Below are positions 7,147 through 38,827 of a DNA stretch of 64,000 nucleotides, one piece after another (position 1 is the stretch's first letter; each line of letters starts with the position of its first letter). A program made the position numbers and the translations under genes. A model generated the notes under the pieces. That model was not told where the DNA came from and did not search any database. It worked only from the letters and a program-made list of their open reading frames with translations. The DNA is from a virus. The stretch lies in the IMG/VR virus record IMGVR_UViG_3300045918_000146, positions 1 through 64,000 of that record. The stretch is one strand, 5' to 3'.

Positions 7147-7956
7147 TCACTCTTCCCCATATAATTTCAATACTTCTGAAACTAACGGGTGTCTTTGTAC
7201 ATCAGAATGCCCAAATTCCAATGTTACGATAGAATTGCCACGATAATTCTTAAACCGTTTAAAAAAGTCAGATAAACCATTCTCGGTTACAAATTTCTTA
7301 TCCATCTGTTTTAAATCGCCGGTAATAACCATCTTAGAGCCTTCACCTATACGTGTCAATAACATTAAAGTCATGTTAGAACTTGCTGACTGCATTTCGT
7401 CAGCAACAACAAAGGTATTTTTGAAAGTTCTACCACGTAACATAGATAACGCAGCTAATTCTAATACTTCTTCTTCCAATAAACGGTTCAATTCTTGAAT
7501 GGTATAATATTCTTTAAATATTTCCATTATTGGTACTGCCCATGGTAACAGTTTTTCGGTTAACGTTCCAGGTAAGAAACCATGATTTTCGTTATCTACT
7601 GCAACTGCTGGTCTAGTTATTACAATCTTACTTATTTCACCCCCTTTCAGTGCTTTTATAGCTGCCAATACCCCAAGCCAGGTCTTGCCAGTACCCGCCG
7701 GGCCAGTAGCAAATATAACTAATTTATCTGGGTCCATAAGGTAATCTACATATTCTGACTGTTTTTCTGATTTTGGTGTAATAGATACTGTTTTCCTTTG
7801 TTCAACAAATGATTTAAAATTAAAAACATTATTACTTATTGTGCTACTTCTTGGATTACTACTTTGTCTTTTTCCCCCTTTGTTTGAGATTCTATGTTGT
7901 GGTACTTCTGCTACATCATCAAATGCTACTTTACGGGTAGTTCTACGTTTGGACAA
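7147..7956 (-). CDS. phoH: PhoH-like ATPase (269 aa)
   Basis: PhoH-family P-loop ATPase, frequent in large phages and linked to RNA metabolism. Walker A is GPAGTGKT and Walker B is VVADEMQ, followed by the family ITGDLKQMD sensor segment. The N terminus has a basic, disordered 60-residue extension. I chose the TTG at 7956 because AAGGAG lies 8 bases before it and it gives the plausible N terminus MSKRRTTRKVAF. A GTG 39 bases upstream is the alternative (282 aa). It is transcribed against the surrounding genes. Host PhoH works with YbeY-type RNases, but the phage role is unknown. Confidence 0.9.
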   Translation of the reverse strand: MSKRRTTRKVAFDDVAEVPQHRISNKGGKRQSSNPRSSTISNNVFNFKSFVEQRKTVSITPKSEKQSEYVDYLMDPDKLVIFATGPAGTGKTWLGVLAAIKALKGGEISKIVITRPAVAVDNENHGFLPGTLTEKLLPWAVPIMEIFKEYYTIQELNRLLEEEVLELAALSMLRGRTFKNTFVVADEMQSASSNMTLMLLTRIGEGSKMVITGDLKQMDKKFVTENGLSDFFKRFKNYRGNSIVTLEFGHSDVQRHPLVSEVLKLYGEE

Positions 7957-8122
7957 ATTTGTTACTCCTTTTCTGAAAGTGAGTTTAGTACTCACAATGT
8001 ATTTAACAGTTTAACTTTCCAATTTTAACTAGGTGTGATTTTTTTGGTCGATAGACTAAATAAGAACCTTTAGTGAATTACCGAAAATATGTAAGAACAT
8101 TTTAATGTTCTGCTCTAAAAGG

Positions 8123-8154: not shown

Positions 8155-8706
8155 ATGACAGTGTCAATCAAAACAGCAATAGAAAACGTAAAAGAAATAA
8201 ATACATCAGATGCAGCGTTATCTACTCTACTAGATATAGAACGAGTTATAGATAATTTAGACATATATGTATTCAAGCACTGGAAACTAGGAGAACTAGT
8301 AGAAGGGCCAATTTTCGAAAAGTATTTCGTAACTACAAAATGGATGTGGGCATACAAGCAAATGCCAGACCCGAGAGGTGGAGAGCAATTACTTAGTTAT
8401 AATTGCGTAGTAACATATAAAAAAGAAAAATTAGAGCATCCAATTAAAATAAAATCCTCTTCGGACTTTAAAGAAGGAACAAAGATCGCAAAGACTACTA
8501 AAATCCCAATTTGGGTCGTAACCATAGTAATGCCTAGAAAATTAATATCTGACATTAGACAAGGTACTATAGAAGTTGAAGGTGAAAAACTAGATATGGC
8601 AGAAATATCTAATTCTTTTGAAGTAGGAATAGACGAAAAAGAATTCAAACAAAACCAAGATAGTATGGAAAAAAATGATACCAATACTGATCAAGGGGGA
8701 TTATAA
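8155..8706 (+). CDS. Conserved phage protein, possible virion component (183 aa)
   Basis: ATG start after a candidate late promoter. The central segment KQMPDPRGGEQLLSYNCVV is distinctive, and I associate it with conserved proteins of large phages of unknown function. An acidic, Asn-rich C-terminal tail follows. It abuts the next gene with no gap. Late position suggests a structural or assembly protein, but no domain shows this. Confidence 0.55.
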   Translation: MTVSIKTAIENVKEINTSDAALSTLLDIERVIDNLDIYVFKHWKLGELVEGPIFEKYFVTTKWMWAYKQMPDPRGGEQLLSYNCVVTYKKEKLEHPIKIKSSSDFKEGTKIAKTTKIPIWVVTIVMPRKLISDIRQGTIEVEGEKLDMAEISNSFEVGIDEKEFKQNQDSMEKNDTNTDQGGL

Positions 8707-9318
8707 ATGCATAACTTACAGGAAGGTTTAAATTCTGGCGATCTTGTTAGACTTATAGAACCTAAATTAGCTATTGATGAATTTCGTTCAAAAATGGGCG
8801 AAGATAAAGATATTGTAGTTGTTGGGTTCACAGTATTTGGTAAAGAACCAGGCGAAGACGTAGTTAACTTTATAGAGAAAAGTTACGATTGGGTATTAGA
8901 TGCTGATCTTAGTTCAGGAGAATTATCTGACGGTAATTATCTAGTTTTTGTGGAATTAAGAAGGGATAACACAGCAGCTAAAAAAATATTCTCTATGTTA
9001 CAGGATATTTTACACTTAACAAAACAAAAGATGACAGACTGGAAGTTTACTTATTATAATAGCAAAGATATATATCAGGTAACAGAAGAAAACTTATATA
9101 AAAAGATTATTAAAACTCCTATAGAGTATGATAAAAAAATAGAAAAAGATACAGCTATAGATAAAGTTGTTAAACAAGCAGAGAAAAACAAAGATAAGAA
9201 CGTTGAGGAAAGTAGAGAATTAAACAAATTACGTGCGTTAGCGAATGTATATGTACAGCCAGTAAAAGTTACAGATCTACCGTTATTAGCACTACAAGTT
9301 GTAGCAGGTATTAGATAA
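8707..9318 (+). CDS. Conserved phage protein (203 aa)
   Basis: The ATG starts directly after the previous stop. The N-terminal half is alpha/beta, with an SYDWVLDADLSSGELSDGNY segment. The C-terminal half is a Lys-rich helix. It is probably co-translated with the gene at 8155. Function unknown. Confidence 0.6.
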   Translation: MHNLQEGLNSGDLVRLIEPKLAIDEFRSKMGEDKDIVVVGFTVFGKEPGEDVVNFIEKSYDWVLDADLSSGELSDGNYLVFVELRRDNTAAKKIFSMLQDILHLTKQKMTDWKFTYYNSKDIYQVTEENLYKKIIKTPIEYDKKIEKDTAIDKVVKQAEKNKDKNVEESRELNKLRALANVYVQPVKVTDLPLLALQVVAGIR

Positions 9319-9327
9319 AGGTATATC

Positions 9328-9957
9328 ATGACAATAACATTAACGGTTGAACAAATAAAAGAGATAGTTCCAACAGCTACACAAGTAGAAGAATGGTGTG
9401 AAGTATTTAACAATAACTTTTCAGATGCAGAAATAGACACTAATGAACGCATTGCGGCATTTATTGCACAATCAGCAGTAGAATCTCAATGCTTTACACA
9501 CTTACACGAGAACTTAAATTACAGAGCTGAATCTTTATTAAAATTGTGGCCTAAACATTTTACCGTGTCTCAAGCTAATGAATGTGCTCATAATCCAGAA
9601 AAAATAGCTAATCGTGCTTATGCGAATAGGAATGGTAATGGAGATGAAACATCCGGAGATGGTTATAAGTATAGAGGTAGAGGATTATTGCAAATTACAG
9701 GCAAAGCAAATTATGCACTGTGTAGTCAATATATGTATGGAGATGATACTTTAGTCCAACAACCAGAGTTACTAGAAACAGATATGGACGTGGCGGTATC
9801 TAGTGCTCTTTGGTTTTGGAGTACGCATAAGTTAAATAATCATGTGGATGCAAATAACTTTAAAATGGTTACACAAAAAATAAATGGCGGACAGACAGGT
9901 GCAGCAGAAAGAGAAGAGTACTTTCATATTGCACTAACTGTATTACAACAAGGATAA
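9328..9957 (+). CDS. GH19 chitinase-like endolysin
   Basis: A 209-residue single-domain muralytic enzyme of the GH19 chitinase/lysozyme-like superfamily, used by phages to cleave peptidoglycan. The catalytic pair is likely Glu52 (QSAVESQ) and Glu61 (HENLNYRAE). The family motif YRGRGLLQITGKANY follows near residue 110, and a C-terminal KINGG segment is present. No signal peptide, so export depends on the holin encoded at 10729. First gene of the lysis cassette, with i-spanin four bases downstream. Confidence 0.9.
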   Translation: MTITLTVEQIKEIVPTATQVEEWCEVFNNNFSDAEIDTNERIAAFIAQSAVESQCFTHLHENLNYRAESLLKLWPKHFTVSQANECAHNPEKIANRAYANRNGNGDETSGDGYKYRGRGLLQITGKANYALCSQYMYGDDTLVQQPELLETDMDVAVSSALWFWSTHKLNNHVDANNFKMVTQKINGGQTGAAEREEYFHIALTVLQQG

Positions 9958-11286: not shown

Positions 11287-11449
11287 ATGCATAGTAGAGT
11301 ATACAAAAACTTACTAATACCTGGTTTGAATAAAACAGGTTACTAAACCAAGATACAGAGGAGTAGATCTATTTGAAAGTAGCTCCCCAAAAATACAAGA
11401 AACATTTAATAAGATTTTACGTAGGATAGAAAATGACAAATCATTATGA
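11287..11449 (+). pseudogene. Possible decayed small gene in the dnaJ leader
   Basis: ATG at 11287 reads 19 codons to TAA at 11344-11346. A second frame, shifted by one base, then reads protein-like sequence (VTKPRYRGVDLFESSSPKIQ) up to TGA at 11449, overlapping the dnaJ start. One frameshift near 11338 would join them. The first ATG coincides with the predicted transcription start, so the upstream half may never have been translated. The leader may instead be purely regulatory. Confidence 0.3.
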
Positions 11450-12290
11450 AACTCTAGGTGTTGATAAAAATGCCTCCACAGAAGAAATTAAAAAAGCTTA
11501 TCGAAAGCTAGCATCAACATATCACCCCGACAAAGCAGGGGGAGATACCGAAAAATTTAAGTCAATTCAGGTAGCATATGACACAATAAGTGATCCACAA
11601 AAAAAGAATCAATATGATCAAGAGTTATCAGGAGTAGGGCATAGACAATTCCATTTCCATGCTAGCGGAATGAATCCAGAAGATATGATGGGCGGAGACG
11701 TATTTGAACATTTACGTAGACAATTTGGGTTTGATCCTTTTGGTCATCATCAACAACAACCTCAACGTCCTCAAAATAGAGATATCCGAGTTATGGTAGT
11801 AGTCGATCTAGTAGATACTTTAAAAGAACAGAAAAAAACATTAAACGTTTCTATTGGAGGTACACATAACGAAACAATTGAGATTACTATTCCAAGAGGA
11901 ATCCATAACGGTGCAACTATAAAGTATCCTGGATTAGGAGATAAATCTATTTCTAATTGTCCTAAAGGAGACTTGTATGTTCAATTTCAAATTAATTCGC
12001 ATCCTAACTTTGAACAATACGGTATTGACTTATATACTAAAACTACAATAAACTGTATTGATGCTATGATAGGATGTGAAAAAGAAGTCGTTGGTATAGA
12101 TGGTAAGGTATTTAAATTAACTATACCTTCTGGTACTCAAGCAGGTACGAAAATGGGAATACCTGACGAAGGCCTATATGCTCCACAACAAGCTATCCGT
12201 GGTAAGTTGATCGTGCATATTGAAATCTTTGTTCCATCGGTAACAAATGAGCAAATATCTATACTTAGAACAGTTCAATCACTAGTGTAA
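11433..12290 (+). CDS. dnaJ: DnaJ/CbpA-type Hsp40 co-chaperone
   Basis: This 285-residue protein opens with a J-domain (about residues 4-65, HPD at 31-33) that stimulates the DnaK ATPase. A short linker rich in Gly, Phe, His and Gln follows. Next are the two C-terminal substrate-binding beta-sandwiches ([32 protein letters not shown]). There is no CxxCxGxG zinc finger, so it is type II, like CbpA. It would recruit host DnaK to phage substrates, probably folding or assembling virion proteins. It is the first gene after a strong promoter, followed 44 bases later by a ClpA-type unfoldase. Confidence 0.92.
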
Positions 12291-12334
12291 TTATTTTTGT
12301 CGAATTAAAAGTTAACTAACTGTAGGAAAATAAT

Positions 12335-14635
12335 ATGATCAATTCAAATCCAGAAATTGAAGTTATAGTATCTAATGCAACTAATAGTGCTAAAAGTTCT
12401 TACCACGAGTATGTAACGTTAGAACATCTAACACTAGCATTGATTAACTATAAACCATTTAACCAACTAATAGTTGATTTTGGTGTAGATGTTCTATCCT
12501 TACAACAAGAATTAAATACATATTTAGCATCTCAACAATATTTAATTAGTAAAAACCCAGATTACGAAACACCACGTAGAACACATGCACTAGAAAGAGT
12601 CTTTAATCGTGCATTTACGCAGGTATTGTTCAGTGGTCGAAATACTATGCAAGTTATAGACGTATTTGTTAGTGTAGCTGGAGAACAACATAGTTTTACA
12701 CAATATCTTTATGCAAAGTATGGACTTGATAGACAAGGGCTAATTGATTTCTATAAGAAAAATTATAACGAAGCAAAAAGTTCAAAAACTGCTATGTCAT
12801 CAAAAGCTGACCAAATACTCGAAGAGTACTGTACTGATCTTAATAAGAGAGCAATTGAAGGTAAAATAGACCCTGTTATCGGAAGAGATAATGAGCTTGA
12901 AGAAATATCAGAGACATTGGCACGTCGAGGTAAAGCTAACGTTCTTATTATAGGTTCCGAAGGCATAGGTAAGACTGCGATCGCAGAAGGCCTAGCACTA
13001 CATATAGTAAATAAGCAAGTTCCTGATTATCTATACGAGTATACAGTATATAATCTTGATATTGGGTCTCTACTTGCAGGTAGTAAGTATAGAGGTGAAT
13101 TTGAAGAAAAGCTAAAAGACGTTTTAAAGGCACTTGATCAAAAAGGAAAAACGATCTTATTCATAGACGAAGCACACCAAATGCGTGGAGCAGGTGCTGG
13201 ATCTGGAGGATCTTCGGTAGACTTTGCAAATATGATTAAACCTGCTTTAACAAAAGGTAATATTAAAGTTATTGCGTCTACTACATGGGCTGAATATACA
13301 CAATCCTTTGAAAAGGATCGTGCTTTAATGAGACGGTTTCATAAACTGGTTATTGAAGAACCTACACCAGCAGTAGCAAAAGACATTTTACGTGGGTTAA
13401 AAACACACTTTGAAAAATTCCATAATGGTACGATAGATGATACAGCAATTGAAGCTGCTGTAGATTTGTCAGTACGCTATCAAACAGATAAGCGTTTACC
13501 AGATAAGGCAATTGATTTGATAGATACCGCATGTGCTAAGATGCGTATTAAGAATGCACCATTTACCATTACAAGATCAAACATTGTTGATACTATTAGC
13601 AAATTTACGAAGATACCAGCCGACCAAATAGGGTCAGAACATACAACAACTTCCCTCGAAGGCTTAGAAGAAAACGTAAAATCACAAGTGTTTGGACAAG
13701 ATAAAACAATAGATGAAATCTTAGAGAAAATCTACGTTGCTAGGGCAGGATTAAAGTCTATTAATAAGCCAGTTGGATGTTTCTTATTTACAGGCCCAAC
13801 AGGAACAGGAAAATCATTGACTGCAAAGGCACTAGCAGAAAACTTAAATATGAAGTTGATCAGGTTCGACATGGGAGAATTCCAAGAACGTCATTCGGTT
13901 GCAAAGTTAATAGGTGCTCCTCCGGGGTATATTGGTTATGAGGACAGTAACCTAGGTGGTGGATTATTAATTAGTGAAATTGAGAAAAATCCTAATTCAA
14001 TTATCTTATTTGACGAGATAGAAAAAGCACACCCTGACGTATCTAATATCTTATTATCGTTAATGGATGAAGGTGTTGTAACTAGCAGTAATGGTAAAAA
14101 AGCAGACGCTAGAAATACAATTATTATATTAACATCTAACCTCGGCGCAGTTGAAAGCGAAAAGCACTCAATTGGCTTTGGACATAATGTAAAAACAGAC
14201 GAAGATGATAAGGCACTCAAGGAATTTTTTAAGCCAGAGTTTAGAAATAGGTTAGATGGTGTGTGTCGTTTTAATAAATTAACGACTACCGATATAAAGA
14301 AAATTGTAGATAAAGGTATACACGAAATTAACGACTTATTAAGTGATAAACATATTAAGATTACACTTACTGACATCGCTATAGAGTATCTAGCCGATAA
14401 AGGATTTGATGCTAAAATGGGTGCAAGACCAATGGCACGTAAGATCAATACGTTAATAAAAGTTCCTTTGAGTAAGAAGATATTATTTGATCACATATCT
14501 AATGGTTCAAGCATAGTAGTAGACATTGTGAACAACGAAGCAACATTTGTAGTTACTGAACCTTTAGTGTCACAAATATTGTTAGGTAATAACACTAAAC
14601 CAACAGTTGATGTTAATGGATATGTGGTTGTTTGA
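12335..14635 (+). CDS. ClpA-type AAA+ unfoldase with ClpP-docking IGF tripeptide
   Basis: This 766-residue Hsp100 protein has a Clp N-domain (about 1-145) and two AAA+ modules. D1 has Walker A GSEGIGKT (207-214, second residue Ser-Glu instead of the usual Glu-Pro) and Walker B ILFIDEAH. D2 has Walker A GPTGTGKS (487-494), Walker B IILFDEIEKAH and the pore motif GYIGYE. No ClpB middle coiled coil is seen, so it is ClpA/ClpC-like. A loop after D2 contains IGF at 613-615, the position of the ClpA IGL and ClpX IGF loops that dock on ClpP. It may unfold proteins for host ClpP. No ClpP gene is in the window. Confidence 0.9.
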   Translation: MINSNPEIEVIVSNATNSAKSSYHEYVTLEHLTLALINYKPFNQLIVDFGVDVLSLQQELNTYLASQQYLISKNPDYETPRRTHALERVFNRAFTQVLFSGRNTMQVIDVFVSVAGEQHSFTQYLYAKYGLDRQGLIDFYKKNYNEAKSSKTAMSSKADQILEEYCTDLNKRAIEGKIDPVIGRDNELEEISETLARRGKANVLIIGSEGIGKTAIAEGLALHIVNKQVPDYLYEYTVYNLDIGSLLAGSKYRGEFEEKLKDVLKALDQKGKTILFIDEAHQMRGAGAGSGGSSVDFANMIKPALTKGNIKVIASTTWAEYTQSFEKDRALMRRFHKLVIEEPTPAVAKDILRGLKTHFEKFHNGTIDDTAIEAAVDLSVRYQTDKRLPDKAIDLIDTACAKMRIKNAPFTITRSNIVDTISKFTKIPADQIGSEHTTTSLEGLEENVKSQVFGQDKTIDEILEKIYVARAGLKSINKPVGCFLFTGPTGTGKSLTAKALAENLNMKLIRFDMGEFQERHSVAKLIGAPPGYIGYEDSNLGGGLLISEIEKNPNSIILFDEIEKAHPDVSNILLSLMDEGVVTSSNGKKADARNTIIILTSNLGAVESEKHSIGFGHNVKTDEDDKALKEFFKPEFRNRLDGVCRFNKLTTTDIKKIVDKGIHEINDLLSDKHIKITLTDIAIEYLADKGFDAKMGARPMARKINTLIKVPLSKKILFDHISNGSSIVVDIVNNEATFVVTEPLVSQILLGNNTKPTVDVNGYVVV

Positions 14636-17056: not shown

Positions 17057-17839
17057 ATGAGCCTACAATACTTACATAAACCAGCTTATAGTAATTGGTT
17101 AATGCTAGACCCTAATGGTATAGAAATGTGCCGTTGTGCAGATAAACGAGCAAAATGGTACTTGGATCGAAATCTTGCAGATATAGTAAATGAAGATCCC
17201 CCAACCTTTAAACTTAAATTTGCACCAAATGGAAATGGGAATAAAGACGATGCTTATAGTTTGGCTCAAAAGTTTAATAGATGTGCAGTCTGTGGTACAG
17301 AGGACGAATTAACTAAGCATCATATCGTTCCGTATATGTATAGGAAGTGGTTTCCTACTAAATTAAAAGGACGATCAGCACATGATGTAGTCGTTATATG
17401 TGTAACATGTCATGAGAATTACGAAACTAGTGCAATGATATTAAAGAAGCAGATTAGTTTAGAAATCACAAATAACACACAATTAACTACTAAATTAACA
17501 GCTATACAATCACATAATAAGCGTATAGCACGTTTATGCTCTGCACTGTTAAAAGATAGCGGTTCTATTCCAAACAGTAGAAAAGATGAAATTATTTCAA
17601 ATATAACAGAACATTTAGGTTATAAGCCATCTATAACAGATCTTAATAATCTTATAGAAATAAGTAAAGCTCATACTAAATGTAATCAAGATCCAGGTAA
17701 AGAGATTGTTGAATGTGTGATAAAAGATAATAATCTTGACTGTTTCATACGAAGATGGAGACAGCATTTTATTGACATTGCATGTCCAATGTTCATGCCG
17801 GAACATTGGAGTATAGAAAGGAGAAGTAAAATTGAGTAA
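17057..17839 (+). CDS. HNH-type nuclease domain protein (EXD2-HNH-like)
   Basis: The 260-residue protein carries an HNH/treble-clef domain at about residues 78-125: CAVCG, LTKHHIVPYMYRKWFP, then VICVTCHENYE. The tandem His and the paired CxxC are the metal site. This arrangement resembles the HNH module in the exonuclease EXD2 and its phage and giant-virus relatives. The C-terminal half is helical and unassigned. It follows a promoter and overlaps the NADAR gene, so it is more likely an early accessory nuclease than a homing endonuclease. Cleavage activity is inferred. Confidence 0.75.
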   Translation: MSLQYLHKPAYSNWLMLDPNGIEMCRCADKRAKWYLDRNLADIVNEDPPTFKLKFAPNGNGNKDDAYSLAQKFNRCAVCGTEDELTKHHIVPYMYRKWFPTKLKGRSAHDVVVICVTCHENYETSAMILKKQISLEITNNTQLTTKLTAIQSHNKRIARLCSALLKDSGSIPNSRKDEIISNITEHLGYKPSITDLNNLIEISKAHTKCNQDPGKEIVECVIKDNNLDCFIRRWRQHFIDIACPMFMPEHWSIERRSKIE

Positions 17840-18308
17840 ATATGTATTGTTTTGGGGTGGTAATTTCAGCAATTGGGCAAAGAGCGAGTTCACCTATAAA
17901 GGTATAAAGTTCTATACAGCAGAAGGTGCATTTATGTGGGAGAAATCTGTCTGTTTTGGCGATGTTGAAAACGCAAATGCAATATTAAAGATAAAGCAAC
18001 CAGATGTTCAAAAACAACTAGGTAGATGTATATCTGGCTATAACGAAGAAGTTTGGGCAAATGTTAGGTATAGAGTAATGTTAGACGTATGCCGGGAGAA
18101 ATTTACACAGAATAGAAAATTACTAACTGAATTACTTAATACAGGAAGTAAAATTATCGTTGAAGCGAGTCCATATGATACAATCTGGGGAATAGGACTT
18201 GGTGTAGAAGATCCGCGTGCATTAGACGAAACACAATGGCTGGGTCAAAACCTATTAGGTAAGGTTTTAATGGAACTAAGATCTGAATTTGTTACTAGCT
18301 TAGAGTGA
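17832..18308 (+). CDS. NADAR family ADP-ribose N-glycosidase (YbiA-like)
   Basis: A full-length NADAR protein of 158 residues. FWGGNFSNW, YTAEGAFMWEKS and SPYDTIWGIGLG follow the family layout. NADAR enzymes cleave ADP-ribose from N-glycosidic linkages, including ADP-ribosylated guanine in DNA made by DarT-type toxins, and some act in riboflavin breakdown. In a phage, reversal of host DNA ADP-ribosylation is the most attractive role, but it is not proven here. The start is TTG with AAAGGAG ahead of it, overlapping the HNH gene by 8 bases. Confidence 0.85.
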   Translation: MSKYVLFWGGNFSNWAKSEFTYKGIKFYTAEGAFMWEKSVCFGDVENANAILKIKQPDVQKQLGRCISGYNEEVWANVRYRVMLDVCREKFTQNRKLLTELLNTGSKIIVEASPYDTIWGIGLGVEDPRALDETQWLGQNLLGKVLMELRSEFVTSLE

Positions 18309-19010: not shown

Positions 19011-20459
19011 ATGCGAATTAAGGAAATATACGAAGCTGTTAGTAAGAAAATATTAGTTATCTACCCTGGGAGATTCCAACCGTTTCATAAAGGACACTAT
19101 GCGGTATATCAACATCTGTGTGAGAAATACGGAGAGGGTAACGTAGTTGTAGTAACATCAAATAAAGTAGATCCACCTAGATCACCGTTTGATTTTGGTG
19201 AGAAAATGACTATGATGACACTAACTGGTGTAAATTCAAATGCTATAGTACAAGATGCACAACCATACCAGGCTAAAGAATTAGTTGCTAAATACGATCC
19301 AGATTCTACGATTTTAATATTTGCTGTATCAGAAAAAGATATGGCCGAAGATCCTAGATTTCAATTTAAACCAAAAAAAGATGGCTCTCCTAGTTATTTC
19401 CAACGTTTACCTGACCAACTTAACAAAGCCAAGCCACTAAAATATCACGGGTACATTGCTACGGTCCCAACATTTAATTTCGAAGTATTGGGTCAACCTG
19501 CTAATAGTGCAACACAAATACGTGCCCAATTTGCTAATGCAGATGAAGCTACACAAAAAGCAATAGTAACTGACTTATTTGGAAAATTTAGTACTAGTGT
19601 ATTAAATATAATGCAACGTAAATTAATTATTCAAATTGAATCTATTTACACAGACTTAGTCACAATGCCCGCTTCGGATCTGCAACAAATTAACAAAACA
19701 TTAACAGAAATAAATAATGTCGCATTGACAGGTAATAATAAAAAACCATATGAATTACTAAAACAGTTAAACACGTATATTAATATCATACCTAATCAAA
19801 GATCTGACCAGTTAACTGAATCAATACTAACTATATTTAATAGAGCTATTAAATGTGCAGCACAACTACAGGTTGAGAATTTTGAAAAAGCAGTATTGCT
19901 AAGTGATAATAGTCAAGTATTTCATCCAACTAATGCACAAAAAGCTCATCATACAGTTAAAGAAGCAATAGACGCAGAAACTAATGATAAACGTCAATTA
20001 TTATATCGTACTAATACAGTTATATCAGGATTCCCTAAAGGTACTAAAGTTAGGCGTGTATCAGGATCAAATCGTATGTATGAAGTAATGCAAGATGGTA
20101 AAGTTATAAAGGTTATTCCATTAAGTTTAACTCAGATAACTCCTATATTAATAAGCGGAAATTTAATTGATGGAGAAGTGAAAAACACAAATATCACGTT
20201 ACCTATAAACAGTGTTCGTGAATCCACTACATCCAGTAAAGTATATTACTTCATTAATGTAGATAACTTATTAACAAAGGATCCAAACTTATCATCGGCG
20301 CATCTTAAAGCAAAAGGACTAAGATGTACACAAACTGGGGAATGGTTTTTACCTACAGATACCGAAAACGAAAATAAAACCCTGTTTTTAAGTCAGTTAA
20401 AGCACATAGAAAATATATGTCAAACAAAAGCAAAAAGATGGCATCCAAAAGCTAAATAA
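19011..20459 (+). CDS. Nucleotidyltransferase (NMN adenylyltransferase-like) with capsid-targeting-like start
   Basis: The 482-residue protein begins MRIKEIYEAVS, like a T4 capsid-targeting sequence. A nucleotidyltransferase domain follows (about 12-185): LVIYPGRFQPFHKGHYAVY contains the HxGH site at 26-29, and PANSATQIRAQF resembles the ISSTxIR motif. This family includes NMN adenylyltransferases of NAD synthesis and cytidylyltransferases, so the substrate is uncertain. The C-terminal 290 residues are not enzyme-like and hold short phi-x-E sites (TVKEAID, SVRESTT), possible prohead protease cuts. The enzyme may be packaged and injected. Confidence 0.75.
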   Translation: MRIKEIYEAVSKKILVIYPGRFQPFHKGHYAVYQHLCEKYGEGNVVVVTSNKVDPPRSPFDFGEKMTMMTLTGVNSNAIVQDAQPYQAKELVAKYDPDSTILIFAVSEKDMAEDPRFQFKPKKDGSPSYFQRLPDQLNKAKPLKYHGYIATVPTFNFEVLGQPANSATQIRAQFANADEATQKAIVTDLFGKFSTSVLNIMQRKLIIQIESIYTDLVTMPASDLQQINKTLTEINNVALTGNNKKPYELLKQLNTYINIIPNQRSDQLTESILTIFNRAIKCAAQLQVENFEKAVLLSDNSQVFHPTNAQKAHHTVKEAIDAETNDKRQLLYRTNTVISGFPKGTKVRRVSGSNRMYEVMQDGKVIKVIPLSLTQITPILISGNLIDGEVKNTNITLPINSVRESTTSSKVYYFINVDNLLTKDPNLSSAHLKAKGLRCTQTGEWFLPTDTENENKTLFLSQLKHIENICQTKAKRWHPKAK

Positions 20460-38077: not shown

Positions 38078-38827
38078 ATGAGCAACACCACAGTATCTCT
38101 TATGTTTTCTGGAGGTTTGGATTCTTTAATTTCTTATCATTTTGCGTTAAAAACTGGACATATACCGCAAGCAATACACGTAGATTTAGGGCATCCGTAT
38201 TCAAGTTTTGAAAATGAAGCTATTAAGGTAGCAGAAGAGAAATTTAAAATAGATGTCACACGTATTGATATGAAGTCGCTGTATCCTGCTATTGAAAAAA
38301 GGTTATCTAATCAAATAATTCCGAGTCGTAACGTATTACTTGCTACTATAGGATCTATGTTTAATTCTACAGTATGGATTAATGCTCTCGACGGCGAAGC
38401 CAATGGTAAGGAGCATGATAAATCTTATCGTTTTTTTGCAGATAGTTCAGAACTACTTAGCTTTACTAATTCGTTTTTTCAAGATCATACTAATGTAACA
38501 AGTCCATTCTTACATCTATCTAAAGCAGAAACGATTAAGTGGGCTTTAGAAAATAGTTTATCTAAAGAAGATTTATTTAATACCGTAACTTGTTATTCAG
38601 GAACACATAAGAAATGTGGACGTTGTCTTACTTGCGTAAAACGGTATATGGCATTTAAATTAAATGGTGTTGAAGAACCAGGTTATGATTTTAACCCTTT
38701 AGAATCTCCGTATGCAGAAGAACTTGCTATAGAAATGCAAAAAGCAATTGATAATAATGACCATAGTAGGTTTAATCAAAAACGTATTGCTGAATGGTTA
38801 ATGTTAAAAAATAACCAAGTATATTAG
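38078..38827 (+). CDS. queC: QueC, 7-cyano-7-deazaguanine synthase
   Basis: Converts 7-carboxy-7-deazaguanine to preQ0 using ATP and ammonia. The PP-loop SGGLDS lies at residues 11-16. The C-terminal zinc site CYSGTHKKCGRCLTCVKR holds the four Cys of the family. At 249 residues it is a normal QueC without an added glutamine amidotransferase domain. Next gene starts one base after its stop. Confidence 0.93.
   Translation: MSNTTVSLMFSGGLDSLISYHFALKTGHIPQAIHVDLGHPYSSFENEAIKVAEEKFKIDVTRIDMKSLYPAIEKRLSNQIIPSRNVLLATIGSMFNSTVWINALDGEANGKEHDKSYRFFADSSELLSFTNSFFQDHTNVTSPFLHLSKAETIKWALENSLSKEDLFNTVTCYSGTHKKCGRCLTCVKRYMAFKLNGVEEPGYDFNPLESPYAEELAIEMQKAIDNNDHSRFNQKRIAEWLMLKNNQVY

What the first reader, a model, noticed from the sequence alone, without database searches (positions are those of the whole stretch)
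12335..14635. Phage ClpA-type unfoldase that keeps a ClpP-docking IGF loop
The tripeptide IGF (613-615) stands where ClpA has IGL and is the sequence used by ClpX. A phage unfoldase able to plug into host ClpP would redirect host proteolysis. Its N-domain lacks obvious similarity to ClpS-binding ClpA residues, so the substrates may be phage-chosen.
Basis: partly seen in the sequence, partly recalled or inferred. Interest (0 to 1): 0.7.

Follow-up and report, generated by a model that had tools for sequence, protein, structure and literature searches.

The report
Phage ClpA, likely with phage ClpP
A giant-phage relative carries a complete ClpA protein-unfolding motor with an intact docking loop for the ClpP protease, and its larger relatives usually carry their own ClpP and ClpS too, so it more likely drives a phage-made protein shredder than one borrowed from the host.

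Summary
The ORF at 12335-14635 (+) is a full-length, motif-complete ClpA-type unfoldase (766 aa), with IGF at residues 613-615 exactly where E. coli ClpA has IGL. The tripeptide is IGF in 78 of 81 close viral relatives while its neighbours vary, and AlphaFold leaves this stretch disordered, as expected of a peptidase-docking loop. Observation confirmed; interpretation only partly right. IGF is not a ClpX-like oddity: 37 of 51 readable cellular ClpA-type proteins have it. The N-domain does keep the four ClpS-contact residues. Relatives long enough to tell usually encode their own ClpP (8 of 11, catalytic triad intact) and ClpS (10 of 11), and all ten named jumbo phages tested encode ClpP. The 79-kb window record is truncated before those genes would appear. 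Across these phages the ClpA loop changes together with the phage's own ClpP pocket; in SCTP-2, ClpA and ClpX both read IGY. So the likelier partner is a phage ClpP, host ClpP second. A DnaJ gene lies directly upstream in 76 of 76 relatives. Phage ClpA, DnaJ, ClpP, ClpS and ClpX were each reported before in jumbo phages. No interaction was tested.

The parts
12335..14635 (+). ClpA-type AAA+ unfoldase, 766 aa: Clp_N domain, D1, D2, no M-domain
   Evidence: Pfam AAA_2 2.5e-51, AAA_lid_9, ClpB_D2-small, Clp_N 1.3e-4; TIGR02639 ClpA 805 bits, below its 993-bit equivalog cut-off; PHROG 4871 ATP-dependent protease 796 bits; E. coli ClpA 1ksf E 8e-184
14171..14179 (+). IGF tripeptide (residues 613-615), predicted ClpP-docking loop of D2
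   Evidence: aligned to E. coli ClpA IGL; IGF in 78 of 81 sequences; pLDDT below 50 at 613-617
13943..13954 (+). four-residue phage insertion (about residues 537-540, DSNL) just after the D2 pore loop GYIG
   Evidence: segment length 21 in 81 of 81 close relatives, Phosso, Atu_ph07 and PA5oct; 17 in 80 of 80 cellular ClpA/ClpC
12335..12757 (+). N-domain (residues 1-141) with ClpS-contact residues E25, E30, T83, R88
   Evidence: E. coli contacts E23, E28, T81, R86 (PMC12493166 citing Zeth 2002); conserved 72, 80, 81 and 81 of 81
11433..12290 (+). DnaJ/CbpA-type J-domain co-chaperone, 285 aa, HPD motif, no zinc finger
   Evidence: DnaJ 2.3e-23, DnaJ_C 2.3e-30; directly upstream of clpA in 76 of 76 relatives with enough sequence
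7147..7995 (-). PhoH-like protein, start of the conserved block PhoH / two virion proteins / DnaJ / ClpA
   Evidence: PF02562 1.9e-60; same block in PA5oct
8155..8706 (+). virion structural protein (PHROG 12928)
8707..9318 (+). virion structural protein (PHROG 13138)

Best explanation
The gene encodes the unfoldase of a phage-encoded Clp protease. Six subunits form a two-tier ATPase ring. The ring takes substrates through its N-domains, probably via a phage ClpS and perhaps helped by the adjacent DnaJ. It pulls them through the D1 and D2 pore loops and docks by its IGF loops onto a ClpP ring that, in this lineage, the phage usually supplies itself. Shown here: full-length gene, intact ATPase and pore motifs, conserved loop predicted disordered, conserved ClpS-contact residues, fixed DnaJ-ClpA gene pair, and ClpP and ClpS genes with intact key residues in most sufficiently long relatives. 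Inferred: that the window phage has ClpP and ClpS beyond its truncated end, that its loop binds that ClpP, and what is degraded.
For: Walker A/B, arginine fingers, sensor and pore loops of both ATPase domains are present. Fold matches ClpA in ClpAP (6uqe, 7uiy, target-normalised TM about 0.84-0.87). Loop conservation and predicted disorder. Among 11 relatives with at least 88 kb upstream of clpA, 8 carry ClpP and 10 carry ClpS; ClpP lies 48-89 kb and ClpS 67-108 kb upstream of clpA, while the window record has only 12.3 kb there. All 10 named jumbo phages have ClpP; 9 have ClpS over the cut-off. All 18 main ClpPs keep Ser-His-Asp and those of the window's lineage are 52-62% identical to E. coli ClpP. 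The ClpS of those relatives keep E79, E82, K84, the partners of the ClpA contact residues. Loop-pocket co-variation: 11 of 11 IGF/IGL phages have an aromatic at ClpP position 82, against 1 of 7 with other tripeptides; SCTP-2 ClpA and ClpX both carry IGY with an altered ClpP pocket.
Against: No ClpP, ClpS or ClpX gene is in the 79-kb record itself. Three long relatives (G010, G018, G019) show no ClpP, and G018 no ClpS. The co-variation is mostly one clade (RaK2-like) plus SCTP-2, and the Fisher test ignores relatedness; G002/G003 and G004/G005 are close to duplicates. The IGF loop would also fit ordinary host ClpP. No interaction data.
Confidence: 0.6

Rival explanations
1. Host hijack: the phage ClpA docks by IGF onto host ClpP and redirects host proteolysis to phage-chosen substrates.
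For: IGF is the commonest tripeptide of the cellular ClpA sampled, so it should fit a generic bacterial ClpP pocket; three long relatives have clpA but no detected clpP, and two of these keep clpS.
Against: Most informative relatives bring their own ClpP and ClpS; in RaK2-like phages and SCTP-2 the loop departs from the cellular consensus along with the phage's own ClpP pocket, which is hard to explain if host ClpP were the partner.
Confidence: 0.22
2. ClpP-independent chaperone: with DnaJ it remodels or helps assemble virion proteins, as suggested for phage ClpA in PMC7824862, and the loop is only inherited.
For: Fixed DnaJ neighbour; gene next to virion structural and tail genes in the window and in PA5oct, RaK2, Munch and GAP32.
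Against: I and G invariant and F kept in 78 of 81, in an otherwise variable loop, among proteins 61-74% identical to the window's, points to selection for docking.
Confidence: 0.15

Closest known systems
ClpA of Agrobacterium phage Atu_ph07 (gp292, with DnaJ gp293, ClpP gp676, ClpS gp708, ClpX gp2; PMC6102473)
   Same: 40% identical, IGF loop, four-residue D2 insertion, DnaJ directly upstream, own ClpP and ClpS
   Different: window record is a fragment without the partner genes
ClpA of Pseudomonas phage PA5oct (NC_071039)
   Same: IGF loop, same insertion length, same PhoH / virion / DnaJ / ClpA block; ClpP, ClpS and ClpX elsewhere in the genome
   Different: 40% identity; N-domain contact residues partly changed
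ClpA of RaK2-like phages (RaK2, Munch, GAP32)
   Same: phage ClpA of the same tree clan, own ClpP and a ClpS-like gene
   Different: docking loop IGV, MNM or LGM; no ClpX detected; ClpS contact residues largely lost
E. coli ClpA (PDB 1ksf, 6uqe)
   Same: domain order, motifs, loop position, four ClpS-contact residues
   Different: IGL loop; no D2 insertion; clpS, not dnaJ, is the neighbour (general knowledge)

Membership tests
ClpA | Clp_N domain plus two AAA+ domains, no M-domain | tested here: met
ClpA | NCBIfam equivalog model TIGR02639 over its cut-off | tested here: not met
   805 bits against 993 required; still the best of all NCBIfam models, so it is ClpA-type but outside the curated cellular equivalog
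ClpA | intact Walker A/B, arginine fingers, pore loops in D1 and D2 | tested here: met
ClpA | xG[FL] peptidase loop in D2 | tested here: met
ClpA | ClpS-contact residues on the N-domain | tested here: met
   E25, E30, T83, R88
ClpA | ClpP-dependent degradation | not testable with these tools
   needs protein biochemistry
PHROG 4871 (phage ATP-dependent protease) | profile match over the full length | tested here: met
   796 bits, residues 5-742 of 766
ClpB/ClpC | M-domain coiled coil in the D1 lid region | tested here: not met
   the segment scored for it (window residues 401-446) has 46 residues against 104-105 in ClpC-type proteins; ClpB itself was not scored
phage-encoded ClpAPS system (in this phage) | clpP and clpS in the same genome | tested here: inconclusive
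   absent from the 79-kb fragment, present in most long relatives at positions the fragment does not reach

The most novel reading that the evidence does not exclude
A large lineage of jumbo phages runs a self-contained Clp protease (ClpA, ClpP, ClpS, often ClpX) with a DnaJ tied to ClpA as a gene pair, and in some clades the docking code between unfoldase and ClpP has drifted so far (IGY/IGY in SCTP-2, MNM in Munch) that the phage machine is insulated from the host's.
Probability: 0.35. Interest if true: 0.65.

Novelty: new member of a known kind. Interest (0 to 1): 0.45.

Why it matters
A phage that brings its own unfoldase, peptidase and adaptor could set protein turnover in the infected cell independently of the host's Clp proteases. 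The joint variation of docking loop and ClpP pocket gives a direct way to test whether phage and host machines mix.

Tried and rejected
IGF as a ClpX-like signature: rejected by the survey of cellular ClpA. N-domain without ClpS residues: rejected. Recent capture from the host: not supported; the 29 phage ClpAs sampled form one side of a supported branch apart from the 77 cellular rows (quick method, long branches for PA5oct and SCTP-2). ClpP, ClpS, ClpX and HSP70 in the window's own record: none. My first recollection of R131 as a ClpS contact was replaced by R86 after reading PMC12493166. Secondary PF00574 hits in four named phages (22-31% identity to E. coli ClpP) were kept apart from the main ClpPs as possible head-maturation-type proteases; not tested further. 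Promoter scan gave no more sites than shuffles. A literature search for pocket residues by L48/F49 found nothing; only Y62 and F82 are literature-supported, the rest of my pocket list is from memory, as are the E. coli ClpP, ClpS and ClpX reference sequences used in the scripts.

Full report
The observation. The ORF 12335-14635 (+) reads without a stop as 766 residues. Pfam finds AAA_2, the ClpB_D2-small domain, AAA_lid_9 and a weak Clp_N. The best NCBIfam model is ClpA (805 bits, below the 993-bit equivalog cut-off), the best PHROG is 4871, ATP-dependent protease, and the best solved structure is E. coli ClpA (E 8e-184). IGF lies at residues 613-615 (DNA 14171-14179), exactly on the IGL of E. 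coli ClpA.

Is it more than chance? In an alignment of the window protein with 80 close relatives from viral contigs (61-74% identical), I and G are invariant and F is kept in 78; the exceptions are IGM, IGI and IGL. The neighbours vary: position 612 is N, A, T, S or Q, and 617 and 618 vary likewise. AlphaFold (mean pLDDT 85) gives stretches of confidence below 50 only at 613-617 and 751-755, so the loop is probably exposed and mobile rather than buried. PMC7707817 describes the IGL of ClpA and the IGF of ClpX as the part docking into hydrophobic clefts of ClpP.

What is not special. Among 52 cellular ClpA-type proteins from one genome scan, 37 carry IGF, 7 MGF, 2 LGF, 2 FGF, 1 PGF, 2 IGL, and one is cut off. 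IGL is the minority form. IGF is therefore ordinary for a ClpA. The scan kept the 80 best matches to the phage protein and is not an even sample of bacteria.

The N-domain. The E. coli ClpA residues that contact ClpS are E23, E28, T81 and R86 (PMC12493166, citing Zeth 2002). The phage protein has E25, E30, T83 and R88 in these places; across the 81 sequences they are kept in 72, 80, 81 and 81.

A phage-specific trait. Directly after the D2 pore loop GYIG the protein has four extra residues (GYIGYEDSNLGGGLL). The same length occurs in all 81 sequences and in Phosso, Atu_ph07 and PA5oct; it is absent from 80 of 80 cellular ClpA and ClpC proteins. Its role is unknown; it might alter substrate grip.

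Neighbourhood. A DnaJ/CbpA-type gene (11433-12290, HPD motif, no zinc finger) ends 44 bases before clpA, and a DnaJ gene lies directly upstream in 76 of 76 relatives with enough sequence. PhoH, two virion proteins, DnaJ and ClpA occur in the same order in PA5oct; the window has further genes between the virion proteins and DnaJ. Phosso has dnaJ, peptide deformylase, clpA; Atu_ph07 has dnaJ, clpA. The DNA polymerase also places the window nearest Phosso and Atu_ph07.

Partner genes. The window's record is a 79,029-base viral fragment without ClpP, ClpS, ClpX or HSP70. In relatives, ClpP lies 48-89 kb and ClpS 67-108 kb upstream of clpA; the window record holds 12.3 kb there, so absence tells nothing. 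Of eleven relatives with at least 88 kb upstream, eight have ClpP and ten have ClpS; two pairs of these are close to duplicates. ClpX was found in five of the nine tested for it. All ten named jumbo phages tested have ClpP, nine have ClpS above the cut-off (one weak), four have ClpX.

Are the partners intact? All 18 main ClpPs have the Ser-His-Asp triad. Those of the window's lineage are 52-62% identical to E. coli ClpP and are hydrophobic at ten of the ten pocket positions I examined. Of these, Y62 and F82 are supported by the literature (mutants lose caseinolytic activity and ADEP binding; PMC11005422); the others are from memory. Their ClpS keep E79, E82 and K84, which pair with the ClpA contact residues, and N34, D35 and H66, recalled as part of the N-degron pocket.

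Loop and pocket vary together. Eleven phages with IGF or IGL have F or Y at ClpP position 82; of seven with other tripeptides (VGF, IGV twice, MNM, LGM, MGM, IGY) one does (Fisher p 0.0004, but relatedness is ignored and six of the seven are one clade). In SCTP-2, ClpA and ClpX both have IGY and the ClpP pocket has V44S, F82M, I90T and M92T. This fits unfoldases tracking their own phage's ClpP, not the host's. The RaK2-like phages tested lack ClpX, and most have also lost ClpS contact residues.

Known before. PMC6102473 lists ClpA, ClpX, ClpP, ClpS, ClpB and DnaJ in Atu_ph07 and states that ClpA is highly conserved in most RaK2-like phages. PMC7824862 reports ClpP, ClpS, ClpA, ClpX and DnaJ scattered among jumbo phages and proposes that phage ClpS serves the host ClpAP. 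I found no paper that reports the joint occurrence across the lineage, the loop-pocket co-variation, the fixed DnaJ-ClpA pair or the D2 insertion, within an open-access library and few searches.

Verdict. The protein is a ClpA-type unfoldase very likely able to dock a ClpP. Its most probable partner is a phage ClpP (0.6), then host ClpP (0.22), then none (0.15). All functional steps remain inference.

Noticed in passing
window 11433-14635: DnaJ-ClpA gene pair fixed in 76 of 76 relatives; why a J-protein is tied to ClpA is unexplained.
   Followed up: partly
window 13943-13954: Four-residue insertion after the D2 pore loop, absent from all 80 cellular proteins examined.
   Followed up: partly
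L223 and L091 (Salicola phage SCTP-2): ClpA and ClpX of one phage share the unusual tripeptide IGY, with an altered ClpP pocket.
   Followed up: partly
window 17832-18308 and 19011-20459: NADAR-domain protein (PF08719, 1.1e-43) and a large protein with an N-terminal nucleotidyltransferase domain (PF01467), possibly NAD-related.
   Followed up: no
window 9328-9957: Glycoside hydrolase 19 protein, probably an endolysin.
   Followed up: no
window 38078-38827: QueC-like queuosine-pathway protein (PHROG 1550).
   Followed up: no
L082 (CAKLQF020000008.1): Record named Acinetobacter phage MD-2021a carries argC, clpS, clpA and aroF and looks like bacterial chromosome.
   Followed up: no
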